A stretch of DNA of 64,000 nucleotides from a virus, in the IMG/VR virus record IMGVR_UViG_3300028840_005764, positions 78,862 through 142,861 of that record; one strand, given 5' to 3'. Below are positions 12,981 through 62,869 of the stretch, one piece after another. Under the pieces are notes generated by a model. The model did no database searches. It saw only the letters and a program-made list of their open reading frames with translations, and had not been told where the DNA came from. The position numbers and the translations under genes are program-made. The stretch's first letter is position 1, and the number at the start of each line of letters is the position of its first letter.

Positions 12981-13964
12981 TTACGCACCTGCTGAGCACA
13001 GAGACACATAAGGGTAGCCTTGCCGTTCCTTATACAGAATTTGCCCAGCCAGTTGTTGGTTGGCTACAGTCGCCACACTCATCTTGGGCAGTCTGCTGTC
13101 GGCTGCACCTTCTGACAGCAGCGGCTGTTGTGTCACGTGTTCGATCGTTTTTTCGCTCAGCAGTTTGACCTGCGCATTGGCGTTTTTCAGTGCGCGGTGA
13201 ATACCAGCCAGCGATTTGACCTCCACGCTCATGGGCACAAAGAATTTTGACGCTTGCCTGTGCCGCTTTTGATACTGAATTGCGAGTGAGCCGTAGCAGA
13301 CTCTTATCAGTGGTTCCCACACACGTTCCCAGAACGCCATGTTTGGAGCGCGTTCGACACCAACCACGTTTTCTCCCAGCAAGATGATGGCACCAATTTG
13401 TTTTGGCACCAACTCAAACTCAGCTACGAACTCATCCAGCTGCTTTTCAAAGTGCTTCAAGAAGTAAGTGAGGTGGCCACCAGTATGTGGCACTCCACTT
13501 TCTTTGTTCAGACTTCTGATGTGCGGCCAGATCTTGTCATAACCTTGTCTGTGTCTCATACTGAGAGCATGAGATCGTATTGATGCTGGCAATACCAACA
13601 TGGTGATCGCTTTCTGGTCTCTGATGTAACCACCTTGGCTGTCCTCGATGCACATGGCTGTCTCGATGGACTTGCGGCCGTTTGCTTTGACCAAAAACGC
13701 GCTTGGCACAGCGTGGTCTTGTGCACGTTCTCTTGTCACCCAACCAGCACCTGTCGGTACGATGCTTGGTCGTGTGCTGTCTGTATTGCGCACTTGAACC
13801 GTACCATAGTTCGATGTTTCCACATGGAAGTCTGGTGGTGCGAAGTCGTCATCTTGCGCGTCGCCCTCGTCGATGAGCGGGATGACAGACATGTGGCCCA
13901 CGGTTTGGGTTCTGCCACGTCCCATTCCTCTGAGGATTTCTTCGACTGTGAGGTTGCGTGTCAT
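12981..13964 (-). CDS. ARPP-1-like domain protein
   Basis: 327 residues. The N-terminal pattern (MTRNLTVEEILRGMGRGR, then YGTVQVRNTDSTRP, GAGW, QDHAV) resembles the ARPP-1 domain, named for association with ADP-ribosylglycohydrolase and rhodanese-phosphatase genes in bacterial and phage genomes; its biochemistry is not established. It ends 4 bp inside the start of the VWA gene, so the two are almost surely co-translated. No signal peptide. Confidence 0.5.
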   Translation of the reverse strand: MTRNLTVEEILRGMGRGRTQTVGHMSVIPLIDEGDAQDDDFAPPDFHVETSNYGTVQVRNTDSTRPSIVPTGAGWVTRERAQDHAVPSAFLVKANGRKSIETAMCIEDSQGGYIRDQKAITMLVLPASIRSHALSMRHRQGYDKIWPHIRSLNKESGVPHTGGHLTYFLKHFEKQLDEFVAEFELVPKQIGAIILLGENVVGVERAPNMAFWERVWEPLIRVCYGSLAIQYQKRHRQASKFFVPMSVEVKSLAGIHRALKNANAQVKLLSEKTIEHVTQQPLLSEGAADSRLPKMSVATVANQQLAGQILYKERQGYPYVSLCSAGA

Positions 13965-55340: not shown

Positions 55341-55348
55341 GGTTGATG

Positions 55349-55954
55349 ATGAAAGTGAAAGATTTTGTTGTTGGATTGTGGCTTTATTTGTGGATTCGTT
55401 TTTTTCTATTCTTTGATATGAGAAAATTTCAGATTGAAAAATCTCGTGCAATACGTGAGAGCAAAGAAGAGAGAATGTCTTTTGATACTTTTAATAGCCC
55501 AGAAACTATTGAAAATATATTCAAAGTTGTAAGATATCGTTCAGATCCTGTTGGAGGATTGTGGGATTATATTAGTGATCCAGAGCATATGTATTTCAAA
55601 ATAAAGACATGGAACTATCAAGAATTTCCAGAAGGCCCATATATCGGCGATTGTGATGATTATGCATTTATGTTCGCGAAATTAATAGTACTCGTTGAAG
55701 GAGTTTCCGAAGTACAACTTTTAAGCACATGTTATCGTGGAAGTGCACACACAACATGTTTATACAAATATGATGAAAAAATGTATATGTTTGATTATGG
55801 TATTATGGAAGTTGAAGATTCTTTTTCAGCTGCGCGTTCGGTGGCGGAACGACATTCGAAAGATAAATCACCTGTAATTCGTTTTACTGTTGTAGAACAA
55901 GTGCTGAAGGACAAATCGTATCCGGTTAAGGCAAAAGCCAGACTATTCAAATAG
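55349..55954 (+). CDS. Transglutaminase-like cysteine peptidase
   Basis: 201 residues from ATG 55349 with GTGAGG 6 bp upstream. An N-terminal membrane-like helix (FVVGLWLYLWIRFFLFF) precedes GDCDDYAFMFAKLIVLV (Cys), SAHTTCLYKYDEK (His) and MYMFDYG (Asp), the C-H-D triad of transglutaminase-like folds. May act on cell wall peptides or proteins. Membrane-anchored if the helix is real. Confidence 0.65.
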   Translation: MKVKDFVVGLWLYLWIRFFLFFDMRKFQIEKSRAIRESKEERMSFDTFNSPETIENIFKVVRYRSDPVGGLWDYISDPEHMYFKIKTWNYQEFPEGPYIGDCDDYAFMFAKLIVLVEGVSEVQLLSTCYRGSAHTTCLYKYDEKMYMFDYGIMEVEDSFSAARSVAERHSKDKSPVIRFTVVEQVLKDKSYPVKAKARLFK

Positions 55955-56503
55955 GAATACAGCAGCGGCAACCACAGTCGTCCACACCCCTTTTTTGCTA
56001 GCCCCCTGAGCAGCCGTTGTAATCTCTGTGCTTGTTATGACCTTGCCACTCATTTCGTAAATTTCTTTGCGCTCATTGTAGTCGGCGTCCGGATCGAACT
56101 CGACACCAAGGGTGCTTGCCAACATTGTTGCTGCGAGGTCCTCTGCGTATTCACCAGCTTCGCCAGCGAGTTTTCCGTAGCTGTGGTACTCAGACAGATA
56201 ACCCCAGTGACTGTTGTCTACAGGGCGTGCTAGGCCGATACTGGCTGAGATTATTCTACCGGGTTCGTTGGTGCTGCATTTCGACATCACAGTGAAGCAT
56301 ATGGAGCCAGGAGGCAATGCGTCCTTTGGCACGGATTCACGTGATATGACCTCACAGTGTGGTGGGCAGATACTGGATACTGTGACCAAGTTGAGGTTGG
56401 CGATCCCAGCATCGCGTAATGCCATTTCGAAACTGGAAAGTTGGGCATTGCACGTGCCAATGCCTTTGGTCAAGAAGAGTTTCTTTGGTATGAATGTATA
56501 CAT
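55943..56503 (-). CDS. Pyruvoyl-dependent arginine decarboxylase
   Basis: 186 residues. FIPKKLFLTKGIGTCNAQ, NLNLVTVSSICPPHCEVI, PGSICFTVM, TNEPGRIISASIGLA and WGYLSEYHSYG match the pyruvoyl-type ArgDC family in order. S43-S44 sits at the self-cleavage site known from the Methanocaldococcus enzyme (LVSVSS), generating the pyruvoyl group. It would make agmatine from arginine. Rare in a phage and oppositely oriented to its plus-strand surroundings. Confidence 0.88.
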   Translation of the reverse strand: MYTFIPKKLFLTKGIGTCNAQLSSFEMALRDAGIANLNLVTVSSICPPHCEVISRESVPKDALPPGSICFTVMSKCSTNEPGRIISASIGLARPVDNSHWGYLSEYHSYGKLAGEAGEYAEDLAATMLASTLGVEFDPDADYNERKEIYEMSGKVITSTEITTAAQGASKKGVWTTVVAAAVFLFE

Positions 56504-56513
56504 GTTGATACTC

Positions 56514-57326
56514 CTACCAAAAAAAGAACGGCTTTTTTATGATTTCTTCCCTTGGTTCGTACATGTCTTTCATCTCTTCTATTGTTGCGTGTTCGTTATT
56601 CCTTCTGTCGATTTTGAAATTGTCTGTTGATGATTCTTCTTCTGGGAATATCGAATCAAGAATCTTTTTGAATGGAAATGCAGGTCCTGGGTCTAATTTT
56701 CTCGTAGGATCTACATCTGAATGCCCTACAATAAAGTCTCGTGCAATATGTGGATGTCTATCAAGAATATCATTTAGAAGTATTTCTACAGCTTGTAGCA
56801 CTGGAGATTGATATGGTTCCCACAAATCAACAGTATTGTCACCAGGCCAATATTTGTTTCTTTTCATTACTTCTGTTGTAGTGGCGTGTATGCGCGGGGA
56901 ATCCCCAGAATACGGATGTGTCCAACGTCGATATCTTGTGTATATTTCACCTATTGCTCTTTGTACACGCGCGCCACTGGCCAATGTGACTGGCGCTTCA
57001 TGCTGTGTGCATTTGTATAGGTTTCCCCAGTTGCTGATTTCAATTCCTATTGTCCACAGATTGAGTGAACCACGCCCGTGTAGCATTGGTTTTGTTGCTG
57101 AACTTCCAGCGTGCCATGCGGCACGATTTTCTTGAATCATCTGTGTGATTTTCCCGTTACGCGCTATCACATAATGCGCAGAGGCCTTTGCCTGTTCCAT
57201 CTGGAACCATTTGATGGTCCCTGCAGTACTACCGCCTGCAGTGTAATGTATAATAATCCCATCGACATCATTGCCTTTTCTGCTTGAGCTGTTGGGAGAT
57301 GGTCTGAATTGGTAATTGCCCATCAC
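56514..57326 (-). CDS. N-acetylmuramoyl-L-alanine amidase (endolysin)
   Basis: 270 residues. GIIIHYTAGGSTAGTIKWF, SAHYVIARNGKITQMIQE, NLWTIGIEIS and FIVGHSDVDPTRKLDPGPAF are the ordered motifs of amidase_2 (PGRP-like) enzymes, with H27 and GHSD giving the zinc ligands. It cleaves the glycan-peptide bond for host lysis. No separate cell-wall binding domain is obvious. Adjacent to the exonuclease on the minus strand. Confidence 0.93.
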   Translation of the reverse strand: MMGNYQFRPSPNSSSRKGNDVDGIIIHYTAGGSTAGTIKWFQMEQAKASAHYVIARNGKITQMIQENRAAWHAGSSATKPMLHGRGSLNLWTIGIEISNWGNLYKCTQHEAPVTLASGARVQRAIGEIYTRYRRWTHPYSGDSPRIHATTTEVMKRNKYWPGDNTVDLWEPYQSPVLQAVEILLNDILDRHPHIARDFIVGHSDVDPTRKLDPGPAFPFKKILDSIFPEEESSTDNFKIDRRNNEHATIEEMKDMYEPREEIIKKPFFFW

Positions 57327-57331
57327 ATCCT

Positions 57332-58240
57332 CTACAAATTTAGTAGCAGGGTCATTGTTTCTGGATCTCTATATATACTTCGAAACTTCAAATCTCTTAA
57401 CAATGAAAGTAATCTTTTTGGTTTTTGTTTTCTTCCGTTCAAACGTACCAATTCTATATCTCGTTTTAATTGAGTTATTTTAAGAAATGTTTTCACGTCT
57501 TCTTGTGCAGATTCTAGTTTCTCTTTAATCTTTGGTGTCATTTTTATATATTCTCTAGCAGCATAAACGTTATTAACTGTTGGTCTTACAAATTGTGAAA
57601 ATATATTTTTTACAGCTATTTTGCCAAGACCTTTGGCTCCAGGAATGTTATCTGTGGTATCGCCGACAAAAGCCAAATAATGTGGATAATATTTTGGTTG
57701 GAATCCATATTCTGCTATGAACGCCTTGATATTCCATAGTTTTGTATCACCGTGTTTCATTCTGATCACAACTGTACCTGGCGCTATCATTTGGAACATG
57801 TCGTGATCGTTGGAGAGAATGAAATATTTTGGGCCTGGATTTTGTGCGATATAGGAAGCAATGATGTCATCACCTTCTTCACCGAACACTCGATATTGAG
57901 GGATGCCATCTAATTGTAGGATTTTTTTACAATAATCTAACGACGTAATGACATCGTCAAAATTCATATTTTTTGTTTTGAATTTTCTACCTTTTTTATA
58001 GTCGGGATATATTTCTTTTTTTCTTTTTGCGCCGCCATCCCAAAATACTATGAAATATTTTGGGTCATATCTTTTTTTAATATGTATTAACGTTTTAACG
58101 AATCCAAATATTAATCCAGTATAGATAACCTCATCATCAATATTTGTTGAGAATTGTTCATGTGCGAATAAGCTTCTAAATGCTAATGCGTTACCGTCTA
58201 CAAGAATTATACGATTTTTGTTTCTTTTTTTTTCTTTCAT
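57332..58240 (-). CDS. 5'-3' exonuclease / flap endonuclease
   Basis: 302 residues similar to T5 D15-like nucleases: ILVDGNALAFRSLFAHE (early acidic), FIVFWDGGAKRKKE, GEEGDDIIASYI, ILSNDHDMFQM and VGDTTDNIPGAKGLGKI (helix-hairpin-helix). It removes RNA primers and trims flaps in phage replication. No polymerase domain is fused. Confidence 0.9.
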   Translation of the reverse strand: MKEKKRNKNRIILVDGNALAFRSLFAHEQFSTNIDDEVIYTGLIFGFVKTLIHIKKRYDPKYFIVFWDGGAKRKKEIYPDYKKGRKFKTKNMNFDDVITSLDYCKKILQLDGIPQYRVFGEEGDDIIASYIAQNPGPKYFILSNDHDMFQMIAPGTVVIRMKHGDTKLWNIKAFIAEYGFQPKYYPHYLAFVGDTTDNIPGAKGLGKIAVKNIFSQFVRPTVNNVYAAREYIKMTPKIKEKLESAQEDVKTFLKITQLKRDIELVRLNGRKQKPKRLLSLLRDLKFRSIYRDPETMTLLLNL

Positions 58241-58349
58241 AGTTCTTCTTCCTCTTATAAATTGTTTTTGGAGTTTTCTATACCATATCCATTACTTGTC
58301 ATGATGAGAAAAATATTCTAAACTTTATTTTGGGGATATGGAGAAAAAG

Positions 58350-58880
58350 ATGGCTCGTAATACAAGAAAGAAAGTCCTTAAGTTCAAGCAACGTCGAGCG
58401 ATTTCTCTGCTCACTGCTTACATGCAAGATGAACAAATCGTTGCCGATGAGGTTGGTGTCAAGCTCACTACACTCCGTAACTGGATGAAGCAAGACCGCT
58501 TCAAGCAGCAGTTGGAAGCCGCCATGCAGCGCGTCGAGGCGTACGACGCGCGGTACCGAACAACCCAGAACAGGGCGTTGGCCACCCAGCTCTATGATGA
58601 AGCGCATCGGCGCGTCGCGATGCGCAAAGACATCCAGGCTATGTCTTTCCCGTCGTTGATGAAGCAGATCCAAGCCATCAACCATGAAGTCAGGATCGAC
58701 ACTGGTGAAGCAACAGGTCGCTCGAAAGTCGAGCATGAGCACAAGCATGAATTTGACTTGGACATGTTGATTCAGAGGTTCAGAGATAACGAAGCCAGCG
58801 ATATTCATCCGCATTTGCGTTTGGTGGAATCGCCGGCCGAGGACGAAGAAGACGAAGAGAAGGAGGCCGCAAGTGGCTGA
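58350..58880 (+). CDS. Terminase small subunit candidate
   Basis: 176 residues from ATG 58350. N-terminal HTH (RRAISLLTAYMQDEQIVADE, VGVKLTTLRNWMK) then a charged helical oligomerisation region and an acidic C-terminus. Position directly before the large terminase supports a DNA-recognition role in packaging. Confidence 0.7.
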   Translation: MARNTRKKVLKFKQRRAISLLTAYMQDEQIVADEVGVKLTTLRNWMKQDRFKQQLEAAMQRVEAYDARYRTTQNRALATQLYDEAHRRVAMRKDIQAMSFPSLMKQIQAINHEVRIDTGEATGRSKVEHEHKHEFDLDMLIQRFRDNEASDIHPHLRLVESPAEDEEDEEKEAASG

Positions 58881-59218: not shown

Positions 59219-61204
59219 ATGCTTTCTATAGAAGGTGGCACACCTAAAATAAAATCTAGTTCAAAACATAAAAAAACAACGCCGCCAAAAAAGGAAGTAA
59301 TTCTTAAACCACGGCCAAAGCTACGGGCAGAGCCAAAACGCGTTCCGAAGCCGCCGGATTGGCAACCTCCACGCTATCGTGTCATTGCCAAAAAACAGTT
59401 AGATGTTCAAAATGCTCAGAATCTTCTCTCGACAATCCCAGGTTTTTTGTTGGGGTTGACAAAAGATCTCGAAGATAGTCCCACGAAATTATATGATTAT
59501 CAAGTAGAACATATCCTTGATAACGCAATATTCAGGGCTGTTGATAAAGCTCGACAGATTGGCGAGTCCTACGTTGCAGCTGGCGAGGCATTGGCGAAGT
59601 GCCATCTCAAGAACAACCACACCTCCATCTTCATTTCGTTCAATCACGAAGAGGCGATGGAGAAGATCCGGTTCGCTAGAGCGCTGTACGATTCTATGCC
59701 CACCGAGTTCAAGAAGGAGCTGGTGGTCGACAACAAGCAGTCGTTGGAATTTGAGCGCCATGGAAAGCTCACGCGTATCCTGAGTTTCGCACAACGGCAG
59801 CCTCGTGGTAAGGGTACGAACACTGACATCCTGCTTGATGAGTTCGCCCACATGATGTGGGCGCGTGAGATCTACGCTGCGGCCGTACCAGTTCTGTCTC
59901 GTGGTTCTGGCGTGCTGACGGTGGCTTCTACGCCACTGGGCAAGAACACACTACACTACGAAATCATGAACAATCGAGAAGACTTTCCTGAGTTTTCTCG
60001 TATGCGTATTCCGTGGTGGTATTGCCCTGAGCTGTGTTCGGATGTTGAGCGCGCACGTGAAGAAGCGCCGCTCATGGATACCGAGGATAGGGTCAAGAAG
60101 TTCGGAACCAAGCGGTTTCGCATCCTATTCCGGAACATGGAAGATGTAGAGACTTTCAAACAAGAGTATGAACTATTTCATATTGATGAATCTGTTTCGT
60201 ATTATCCTCTTGATTTAATCAGAACTTGTACATTCGAAGATGAAAACAAATTAATCCTAGAACCTAATATCGATCCAGAGGAAGTGCCGGTTGGTTTTGC
60301 GCCCATCGAGGATGCAAGTGGTTTGATGGTTCCTGATACCATTATGAATCACTACTCTGGCCAGAACATCAACTGGAATTGTGAAATATTAACAGTTCGT
60401 GGTGATGAGCAGGATTACGTTGACAGGGCCAAGGAGGTCATAGACCAACTGGCTCTATCAATGAGTGAGAGCTCGTATGGCCGCGATCTCTTATTGGGCA
60501 TGGACATTGGGCGTGAAAGGGATTCTTCTGAGATTTCTATTCTAGAAGAAGTTGAGTTGCCAACACACAATATTCACATTGAACGACTTATGTTGGAACT
60601 TGATCGAATTCCATTTAGAGATCAAGAAGAAGTAGTACGCCACTGTCTACAAATCTTTCCCAACATGAAGAAGGTAAATATCGACGCCACTGGCCACGGT
60701 TCCAACCTCGCGGAGAACTTGGAGCTTGATTTCCCTCAAGTGGTTGAGGGGATTAAATTTGATCTTGAAAACAAGGCAGAAATGGCAAAGAACTTTAGGT
60801 TTCGCCTAGAGGACAGAGCTATTGCTTTGTATAATGATACGCGTTCGGTTAGACAAATACATAGCATAAAGAAGAAAATTACAGATTCAGCCAATATTAC
60901 ATATACCGCAGAAAAAAACAAAAAACACCATGGTGATAAATTCTGGTCCAAGGCTTTAGCAAGCGTTGGTGGAACTACATATGATAGAAACAGAGTTGTA
61001 AAACGAATAATTCGTATTGGGAACGAGCAACGGGCCTTTTCTATCAATCAAAAACAAAAAGATAATAACTCTGTGATAAGGATATCTAATAGGTCTATAA
61101 TACCTGTTCAATCCAATATCGGTGGATATAGGACAACCACAGGGTTATTCAACGGCATGGCTTCAATGAGCGATATGTTCACCGACAACAAGTATTATGG
61201 GTAA
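59219..61204 (+). CDS. Terminase large subunit
   Basis: 661 residues. Walker A-like KARQIGESY, Walker B DILLDEFAHM, the coupling VLTVASTPLGK, and nuclease region motifs LLGMDIGRERDSSE and VNIDATGHGSN. The enzyme cuts concatemeric DNA and pumps it into proheads. Starts with the basic tag LKPRPKLRAEPKR near residue 23, as in other proteins here. Uncertain subtype, but the ATPase-nuclease order is clear. Confidence 0.9.
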   Translation: MLSIEGGTPKIKSSSKHKKTTPPKKEVILKPRPKLRAEPKRVPKPPDWQPPRYRVIAKKQLDVQNAQNLLSTIPGFLLGLTKDLEDSPTKLYDYQVEHILDNAIFRAVDKARQIGESYVAAGEALAKCHLKNNHTSIFISFNHEEAMEKIRFARALYDSMPTEFKKELVVDNKQSLEFERHGKLTRILSFAQRQPRGKGTNTDILLDEFAHMMWAREIYAAAVPVLSRGSGVLTVASTPLGKNTLHYEIMNNREDFPEFSRMRIPWWYCPELCSDVERAREEAPLMDTEDRVKKFGTKRFRILFRNMEDVETFKQEYELFHIDESVSYYPLDLIRTCTFEDENKLILEPNIDPEEVPVGFAPIEDASGLMVPDTIMNHYSGQNINWNCEILTVRGDEQDYVDRAKEVIDQLALSMSESSYGRDLLLGMDIGRERDSSEISILEEVELPTHNIHIERLMLELDRIPFRDQEEVVRHCLQIFPNMKKVNIDATGHGSNLAENLELDFPQVVEGIKFDLENKAEMAKNFRFRLEDRAIALYNDTRSVRQIHSIKKKITDSANITYTAEKNKKHHGDKFWSKALASVGGTTYDRNRVVKRIIRIGNEQRAFSINQKQKDNNSVIRISNRSIIPVQSNIGGYRTTTGLFNGMASMSDMFTDNKYYG

Positions 61205-61207
61205 ATC

Positions 61208-62869
61208 ATGCAAACGGAAATGACACAAACGCACGTCCGTAGAATCCCGATGCCTAAGCGGGAGGAGATTGCACAGCTTCCGCAGGTTGCGCAAACAATA
61301 TTAGGTATGTTCGAAGAGGGATTGGACATACGTGACTATAAAGATCTAGCTCGTTCGTTCGTGGATTCTGTGAATGGGAAATCACCTGTATTTGGAAAAG
61401 CCGCTATTAGATACAAGAATCCCAGGATTGTCGATCCTAAGAATTTTTATAGTAGTATCGGCGAATATAATCCAGACAGAATCCCAGTTGAAACTTATGA
61501 AAAAATGAGGCTTGATCCTACGATTGCGCTGGCTACATCTCTCATAGAGCTACCAATTCTGGGTCAGAATTTTCGCATTGTTTGTACCGATGAAAAAATC
61601 TCAGCTGTTGTTGAGGTTCTTCTTCGTCAAATATATAGAAAACTTATTAAATCTATGCTCCGCGCGATTCAATTTGGTTTCGCAGCTGGAGAAAAAGTTT
61701 ATGAAAAGGTTAAACTTAAAGTTGAGGTTGTTGAAGAAGGGGGAGCCAAAAGAACTCTTCACAACAGATATACAGTAAGAATTAAGAAAGTTAAATTTGC
61801 GCATCCAAAATCAGTACGAATTATCAGAGATGAGAAAACCGAAGAAATCAAATATGTGACTCAACCTGCAATACACACAAGTTGGGAAACACCAAAAAAG
61901 GTTAAGATAAGTAAGTGTGTTTGGTTCACAGAAGATGATGAATACGGGAATTTCTTTGGCAATGCGCGTTATACAGCTGCATATCAACCGTGGTATTGGT
62001 GGGCCATTGTTGTGCAGTTCATGCTTCGGTATCTTGAACGGCGCGGTTCCCCAGGTGTTGTTGGTAAAGCGCCATTTGGTCAATCTATCGACAACGATGG
62101 CCAAAAAGCAAACAATCTTGACATTATCATGAAAGCCGCTGCGGCTTTGGGTTCGAATACTGCTGTTTCTATTCCAAGTTCATACGACAAGAATGCAAAC
62201 AAACCGTTGTGGGAACTTGAACTGATTCAAGATGATCAGCGCGGAGACATGTTCATTACTGTTCTGCAGATGTTGAACAGGCTGAAGCTCAGCGCATTGT
62301 TCGTGCCTGATAAAGTTGCTGTTGCCGAAGGTTCGTCGACCAATGCGACAGCAGAATCCCATGTTGATGTGCATTTGATGAGCTTAGAATCTTTGATTCA
62401 GGTTCTTGAAGATGCAATAAATCAACAAGTAATACCTGATTTGGTTAGCTATAATTTTCCTCCGACAAAACAAGTTCCGTGTTCAATAAAGATCGAAAGA
62501 TTAAATTATAGCAAGAGAACTTTGTTAAGGGATGTACTGATAAGAATGCTAATGCTTTCCGCAGGTTCTATTCGAGATGGTGTTTGGCCGAAGAACCTTC
62601 CATCAATACAAAAAATTGCTGATTTTCTTGAAGTTCCTATTGATGAATCGTCTAAAATATTCTTGAATGATATCAAATCAGATGGTAATGATGATGATAA
62701 CGATTCAAATGATAATGAACCGGATGATGATGCATCTGATGACAGTAAACCAGATGACGATGATGATGAACCGCTGGGAAAAGAACAAAAGATAAAAGAT
62801 AGGAACAAAGATGCTGTTCCGCGCAAAGAGCGTACGAGCCGGGACAGAAAATCACGCGAAAGAATTTAA
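61208..62869 (+). CDS. Portal protein (DUF935-like)
   Basis: 553 residues. DPTIALATSLIELPILGQ, FGFAAGEKVYEKV, QPWYWWAIVVQFM, RRGSPGVVGKAPFG and the LSALFVPDKVAVAEGSS/VDVHLMSLESLI region resemble DUF935-type (Mu gp29-like) portals. The last 50 residues are an extremely acidic disordered tail (DDDASDDSKPDDDDDEP). Forms the dodecameric DNA gate. Right after the terminase. Confidence 0.82.
   Translation: MQTEMTQTHVRRIPMPKREEIAQLPQVAQTILGMFEEGLDIRDYKDLARSFVDSVNGKSPVFGKAAIRYKNPRIVDPKNFYSSIGEYNPDRIPVETYEKMRLDPTIALATSLIELPILGQNFRIVCTDEKISAVVEVLLRQIYRKLIKSMLRAIQFGFAAGEKVYEKVKLKVEVVEEGGAKRTLHNRYTVRIKKVKFAHPKSVRIIRDEKTEEIKYVTQPAIHTSWETPKKVKISKCVWFTEDDEYGNFFGNARYTAAYQPWYWWAIVVQFMLRYLERRGSPGVVGKAPFGQSIDNDGQKANNLDIIMKAAAALGSNTAVSIPSSYDKNANKPLWELELIQDDQRGDMFITVLQMLNRLKLSALFVPDKVAVAEGSSTNATAESHVDVHLMSLESLIQVLEDAINQQVIPDLVSYNFPPTKQVPCSIKIERLNYSKRTLLRDVLIRMLMLSAGSIRDGVWPKNLPSIQKIADFLEVPIDESSKIFLNDIKSDGNDDDNDSNDNEPDDDASDDSKPDDDDDEPLGKEQKIKDRNKDAVPRKERTSRDRKSRERI

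What the first reader, a model, noticed from the sequence alone, without database searches (positions are those of the whole stretch)
55943..56503. Phage-encoded pyruvoyl arginine decarboxylase
All family motifs and the Ser-Ser cleavage site are present. Phages encoding polyamine synthesis are uncommon. Agmatine could help package DNA or alter host acid or arginine metabolism.
Basis: partly seen in the sequence, partly recalled or inferred. Interest (0 to 1): 0.66.

Follow-up and report, generated by a model that had tools for sequence, protein, structure and literature searches.

The report
Phage gene for pyruvoyl arginine decarboxylase
A large bacteriophage with a complete genome carries, next to its cell-lysis enzyme, an intact gene for a self-processing enzyme that should turn arginine into agmatine, the first step to polyamines; phages were known to do this with an unrelated protein fold, but no phage in the annotated databases searched here carries this one.

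Summary
Window 55943-56503 (-) is an intact 186-aa PvlArgDC (PF01862, E 7e-56) with the Ser43-Ser44 cleavage site and the residues equivalent to M. jannaschii Asn47 and Glu109. Its AlphaFold model (pLDDT 92.5) matches only M. jannaschii PvlArgDC in the PDB. It is truly phage-encoded: the record is a 142.9-kb virus genome with an exact 144-bp terminal repeat. The gene ends a short leftward operon (5'-3' exonuclease, amidase endolysin, decarboxylase) beside the terminase genes. A second, diverged phage (147.7 kb, 112-bp terminal repeat, TerL 52%) has it at the same place (64% identity). Sister phages hold a different orphan gene there. INPHARED, PHROGs and BFVD contain no such protein. IMG/VR gave further phage contigs with the gene, and a single viral origin is rejected (p 0.001). 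The nearest cellular homologues often lie beside agmatinase, so arginine-to-agmatine for polyamines is the likely role. No agmatinase was found in the 12 phage records searched, so the host would complete the pathway. Phage arginine decarboxylases of the unrelated AdoMetDC fold are already published (PNAS 2023). This is therefore a new variant of a known kind; activity and benefit are untested.

The parts
55943..56503 (-). PvlArgDC gene, 186 aa proenzyme (20.0 kDa); predicted cleavage gives a beta chain of 43 aa (4.7 kDa) and an alpha chain of 143 aa (15.3 kDa)
56372..56377 (-). Ser43-Ser44 self-cleavage site; Ser44 becomes the pyruvoyl group (M. jannaschii Ser52-Ser53)
   Evidence: alignment to 1n2m (S53A) and 2qqd; Ser44 invariant and Ser43 at least 90% in 61 sequences
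56390..56392 (-). Asn38, equivalent to M. jannaschii Asn47
   Evidence: alignment to the N47A mutant chain 2qqd; invariant in 61 sequences
56189..56191 (-). Glu105, equivalent to M. jannaschii Glu109
   Evidence: invariant in 61 sequences
56511..56514 (-). GGAG ribosome-binding site overlapping the endolysin stop codon (TAG 56514-56516)
   Evidence: sequence
56514..57326 (-). Amidase_2 endolysin, directly upstream in the same operon
   Evidence: PF01510 E 9e-28; PHROG endolysin/amidase families
57332..58240 (-). 5'-3' exonuclease, first gene of the leftward operon
   Evidence: PF02739/PF01367, phrog_107
55346..55954 (+). Convergent neighbour of unknown function, 12-bp tail-to-tail overlap with the decarboxylase gene; homologue at the same place in the second phage
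   Evidence: no Pfam or PHROG match
58338..58880 (+). Terminase small subunit
   Evidence: PHROG 2538 and others
59219..61204 (+). Terminase large subunit
   Evidence: PF03237, phrog_5909 and others
61208..62869 (+). Portal protein
   Evidence: PF06074, phrog_113

Best explanation
A lytic-type tailed phage of a bacterium encodes a working PvlArgDC. Shown: an intact gene of this family and fold with the cleavage and catalytic residues, in a complete phage genome, kept at the same locus in a diverged phage. Inferred: the proenzyme self-cleaves between Ser43 and Ser44, Ser44 becomes the pyruvoyl group, and the trimer decarboxylates arginine to agmatine. It is probably made with the endolysin and exonuclease of its operon. 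Host agmatinase or agmatine deiminase turns agmatine into putrescine or homospermidine, which lifts polyamine supply for translation and DNA condensation during phage production. The phage supplies only the entry step.
For: Family and active site. Fold: pLDDT 92.5, top 12 PDB matches all M. jannaschii PvlArgDC. Nearly every column at least 90% conserved in the nearest cellular homologues is kept. Window vs L110 coding differences are mostly synonymous (pS 0.85, pN 0.27). Phage origin: virus record, 144-bp terminal repeat, terminase, portal and endolysin beside it. Same locus and orientation in L110/L113 at 64% identity, with a 14-bp tail overlap there. Pathway: an agmatinase-family gene on the same strand within 4 kb, usually adjacent, in 22 of 80 nearest cellular homologues, with a deoxyhypusine-synthase homologue in several. 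Bacterial host: endolysin, sigma-70 region 2 protein.
Against: No activity data exist. The residue aligned with M. jannaschii Asp35 is Glu26 here and throughout the nearest subgroup; no enzyme of that subgroup with measured substrate was found here, so substrate rests on gene neighbourhood. No downstream polyamine enzyme was found in the phage, so the fate of agmatine depends on an unidentified host. Timing of expression is inferred from gene order only.
Confidence: 0.68

Rival explanations
1. Agmatine itself is the useful product: a divalent cation made late, together with lysis proteins and beside the terminase, that neutralises DNA for packaging.
For: Place in an endolysin operon next to the terminase genes; no arginase-family gene in any of the 12 phage records searched and no agmatine deiminase in the window's genome.
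Against: Gene order is weak evidence for timing; in cells the enzyme's neighbours point to putrescine and homospermidine.
Confidence: 0.15
2. Acid or arginine control: decarboxylation consumes protons and arginine, steadying cell pH late in infection or starving competitors, as in the chlamydial arginine-agmatine exchange system (PMC2720952).
For: Same enzyme family serves such a system in Chlamydia (PMC2720952).
Against: No transporter gene adjoins it; only nearby genes and selected ORFs of the phage were checked for one.
Confidence: 0.1
3. The enzyme has shifted substrate (for example ornithine or lysine) while keeping the fold.
For: Phage AdoMetDC homologues did shift substrate (PMC9992855); Glu26 replaces Asp35.
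Against: Glu at this site is universal in the nearest cellular subgroup, whose genes adjoin agmatinase.
Confidence: 0.06
4. A cellular gene mis-binned or chimerically assembled into a viral contig, or a decaying passenger.
For: GC 50% against 35-43% for the adjacent genes.
Against: Same 12.5 kb in two other assemblies, syntenic homologue in a second phage, terminal repeats, intact conserved residues.
Confidence: 0.01

Closest known systems
Methanocaldococcus jannaschii PvlArgDC (PDB 1n2m, 1mt1, 2qqd, 2qqc)
   Same: Same fold (Foldseek E 2e-18, TM 0.89 by target length), cleavage serines, Asn47 and Glu109 equivalents
   Different: About 26% identity over the structural alignment; phage protein has longer mid and C-terminal segments and Glu26 in place of Asp35
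Bacterial and archaeal PvlArgDC genes adjoining agmatinase (e.g. Thiodictyon plasmid pTs417, Caldilineaceae, Desulfobacteraceae)
   Same: 53-61% identity, same conserved residues
   Different: Cellular copies often adjoin agmatinase, some with a deoxyhypusine-synthase homologue; the phage gene adjoins lysis genes and its genome has no arginase-family gene
Pelagiphage HTVC201P arginine decarboxylase (PMC9992855)
   Same: Phage-encoded, pyruvoyl-dependent, same reaction (predicted here, measured there), and agmatine would be handled by host enzymes
   Different: That enzyme has the AdoMetDC (SpeD) fold and evolved from it; this one is of the non-homologous PvlArgDC fold
Chlorovirus PBCV-1 arginine decarboxylase (PMC9992855)
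   Same: Virus-encoded arginine-to-agmatine step
   Different: PLP-dependent alanine-racemase fold, eukaryotic host, virus also encodes downstream enzymes

Membership tests
PvlArgDC (PF01862) | Full-length match to the family profile above cut-off | tested here: met
   189 bits vs 22.7, profile 1-160/161; TIGR00286 above cut-off, NF009064 below cut-off
PvlArgDC (PF01862) | Ser-Ser (or Thr-Ser) self-cleavage site giving the pyruvoyl group | tested here: met
   Ser43-Ser44 aligns with Mj Ser52-Ser53; presence of residues only, cleavage itself not tested
PvlArgDC (PF01862) | Asn47 and Glu109 equivalents | tested here: met
   Asn38 and Glu105, both invariant in 61 sequences
PvlArgDC (PF01862) | PvlArgDC fold | tested here: met
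   Model pLDDT 92.5; PDB matches
PvlArgDC (PF01862) | Self-cleavage and L-arginine decarboxylation | not testable with these tools
   Needs purified protein
Phage auxiliary metabolic gene | Gene lies within a genuine phage genome, not a host fragment | tested here: met
   Virus record with 144-bp terminal repeat, flanked by phage genes, same place in a second phage
Phage auxiliary metabolic gene | Benefit to phage replication through host metabolism | not testable with these tools
   No culture or infection data
AdoMetDC-fold phage arginine decarboxylase | AdoMet_dc (PF02675) domain | tested here: not met
   Protein matches PF01862 only; PF02675 absent from the genome

The most novel reading that the evidence does not exclude
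Phages have repeatedly and independently captured the PvlArgDC-fold arginine decarboxylase from cells, as a third fold recruited by viruses for the same reaction besides the AdoMetDC and alanine-racemase folds. In this phage group it occupies a swappable cargo slot at the end of the lysis operon, so agmatine supply is tied to the late, packaging and lysis phase.
Probability: 0.4. Interest if true: 0.6.

Novelty: new variant of a known kind. Interest (0 to 1): 0.42.

Why it matters
If active, it shows that viruses have recruited at least three unrelated protein folds for one step, arginine to agmatine, which would make agmatine or putrescine supply a repeated selective need in infection. Two complete phage genomes with the gene at a fixed place, and close sisters without it, give a natural comparison. 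The gene is small and easy to express, so the claim is directly testable.

Tried and rejected
Chimera or mis-binning: rejected. Archaeal host with agmatine needed for tRNA agmatidine: disfavoured, since TiaS is absent from the phage and the endolysin and sigma-70-like protein point to bacteria. A phage-encoded pathway beyond the first step: none of agmatinase/arginase, agmatine deiminase, AdoMetDC or spermidine synthase in the genome; no arginase-family or AdoMetDC match in 11 other records. A single viral origin of phage PvlArgDC: rejected by AU test, p 0.0011. Naming a cellular donor: the quick trees place the window protein without support. The idea that the convergent neighbour is transglutaminase-like rests on a C-H-D/N pattern read by eye; its AlphaFold model was too poor to test it (pLDDT 40). 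Source habitat could not be established: PMC7449369 names the contributor of the metagenomes but the passages read gave no habitat.

Full report
WHAT IS THERE. The ORF at 55943-56503 (-) encodes 186 aa. It matches PF01862 over its full length, E 7.4e-56, and TIGR00286 above the curated cut-off, but scores below the cut-off of NF009064 (180 vs 207 bits). In the phmmer alignment to the PDB chains, the S53A chain 1n2m places Ala at our Ser44 and the N47A chain 2qqd places Ala at our Asn38. This fixes the correspondence: Asn38 = Asn47, Ser43-Ser44 = Ser52-Ser53, Glu105 = Glu109. Across 61 family members Asn38, Ser44 and Glu105 are invariant and Ser43 is at least 90% conserved. Nearly all columns that are at least 90% conserved among the nearest cellular homologues are kept. 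The AlphaFold model has mean pLDDT 92.5, and its twelve significant PDB matches are all M. jannaschii PvlArgDC.

IS IT REALLY A PHAGE GENE. The window is the last 64 kb of a 142,861-base virus record, whose first and last 144 bases are identical, as expected of a completely assembled genome. The gene is flanked by an amidase endolysin and a 5'-3' exonuclease on the same strand and by terminase and portal genes. A GGAG ribosome-binding site overlaps the endolysin stop codon. The 12.5 kb around the gene is identical in two other IMG/VR contigs. The genome also carries 27 tRNA genes, a sigma-70 region 2 protein, a C5 cytosine methylase, thymidylate synthase and dihydrofolate reductase. Endolysin and sigma-like protein indicate a bacterial host.

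THE SAME GENE IN A SECOND PHAGE. Searching with the large terminase brought in L110 and L113, which share an identical 17.9-kb stretch. L113 lies in a 147,747-base record with a 112-bp terminal repeat. It carries the decarboxylase (64% identity) in the same place and orientation: exonuclease, a small membrane-type protein, an M15 peptidase, then the decarboxylase, with the same convergent neighbour on the other side. The tail-to-tail overlap is 12 bp in the window and 14 bp in L110. Only 45 of 155 ORFs of the window's genome have a match in that genome, so the two are well diverged. Sister phages L105, L107 and L112 (TerL 55-59%) lack the gene; an unrelated 164-171 aa protein ends their lysis operon. 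On the TerL tree the sisters without the gene form a clade beside the window phage, with L110 outside. An old gene lost or replaced in the sisters, or horizontal transfer between phages, both fit. The decarboxylase data do not reject window plus L110 as one clade (p 0.71-0.78). Codon comparison gives pS 0.85 (saturated) and pN 0.27, consistent with purifying selection.

HOW RARE. No match by tblastn in 50,697 INPHARED records, with this protein or with a short-form relative. No PHROG family. No significant structural match among BFVD viral proteins. Pattern scans of IMG/VR found about 19 contigs, counting duplicates, a lower bound because scans need exact short patterns. For several, phage genes adjoin: terminase, portal and a phage PAPS reductase in L092; portal and major head protein around the gene in L094, major head protein near it in L095; others carry DNA polymerase A or ribonucleotide reductase. 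Holding six viral sequences as one clade is rejected (p 0.0011), while one of them (L140) groups with Desulfobacteraceae-type sequences at 99% support. Phages have therefore acquired this gene more than once.

WHAT IT LIKELY DOES. Of the 80 nearest cellular homologues, 22 have an agmatinase-family gene within the fetched flanks (up to 4 kb), all on the same strand and most within 210 bp; in some a deoxyhypusine-synthase homologue lies between them. Deoxyhypusine-synthase homologues act as homospermidine synthases in some bacteria (PMC9992855). The natural reading is arginine to agmatine to putrescine and onward. The phage record has no arginase-family, agmatine deiminase, AdoMetDC or spermidine synthase gene, and eleven other phage records carrying the gene have no arginase-family or AdoMetDC match. 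The host would have to complete the path, as proposed for pelagiphage enzymes in PMC9992855. That polyamines help phage replication is reported there and in PMC11898732. Timing with lysis is inferred from gene order only. Substrate is inferred; the residue aligned with Asp35 is Glu in this whole subgroup.

COMPARISON WITH THE KNOWN. PMC9992855 measured arginine decarboxylation by pelagiphage proteins of the AdoMetDC fold and calls the M. jannaschii enzyme a different fold. The passages I read do not report a PvlArgDC-fold protein in a phage; supplementary tables were not open to me. The enzyme is an ordinary family member; its setting is new relative to the collections searched. I rate it a new variant of a known kind.

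LIMITS. No activity, host, expression or fitness data. Trees of this 180-residue protein are poorly resolved. The window's closest cellular donor is unknown.

Noticed in passing
window 55346-55954 (+); homologue L110 4180-4803 (+): Convergent neighbour of the decarboxylase, found by pattern scan only in the two phage populations that carry it; a conserved GDCDDY / AH.TC / F[DN]YG pattern resembles a Cys-His-Asp/Asn catalytic set, but the predicted structure was too poor to judge.
   Followed up: partly
L105 2256-2753 (-), L107 4841-5335 (-), L112 4910-5425 (-): A 164-171 aa orphan protein ends the lysis operon in sister phages, where the decarboxylase sits in the window phage; no convincing Pfam match and no INPHARED match.
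   Followed up: partly
window 1-64000: Strongly mosaic base composition, GC 0.32 to 0.65 per kilobase, with 27 tRNA genes.
   Followed up: no
window 12981-13964 (-): Match to ARPP-1 (PF20208, E 7e-27), a domain named only for its association with ARG and rhodanese-phosphatase proteins.
   Followed up: no
L142 11891-12976 and 12977-14029 (+): In a 136-kb phage record that also carries the decarboxylase, two ORFs look by eye like an F420 ligase-type protein and an IMP dehydrogenase or GMP reductase; not tested.
   Followed up: no
L005 (plasmid record NZ_CP061967.1, labelled Klebsiella pneumoniae): A short-form PvlArgDC followed by ORFs that look like spermidine synthase and agmatinase, unusual for Klebsiella; the record may be mislabelled or contaminated.
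   Followed up: no
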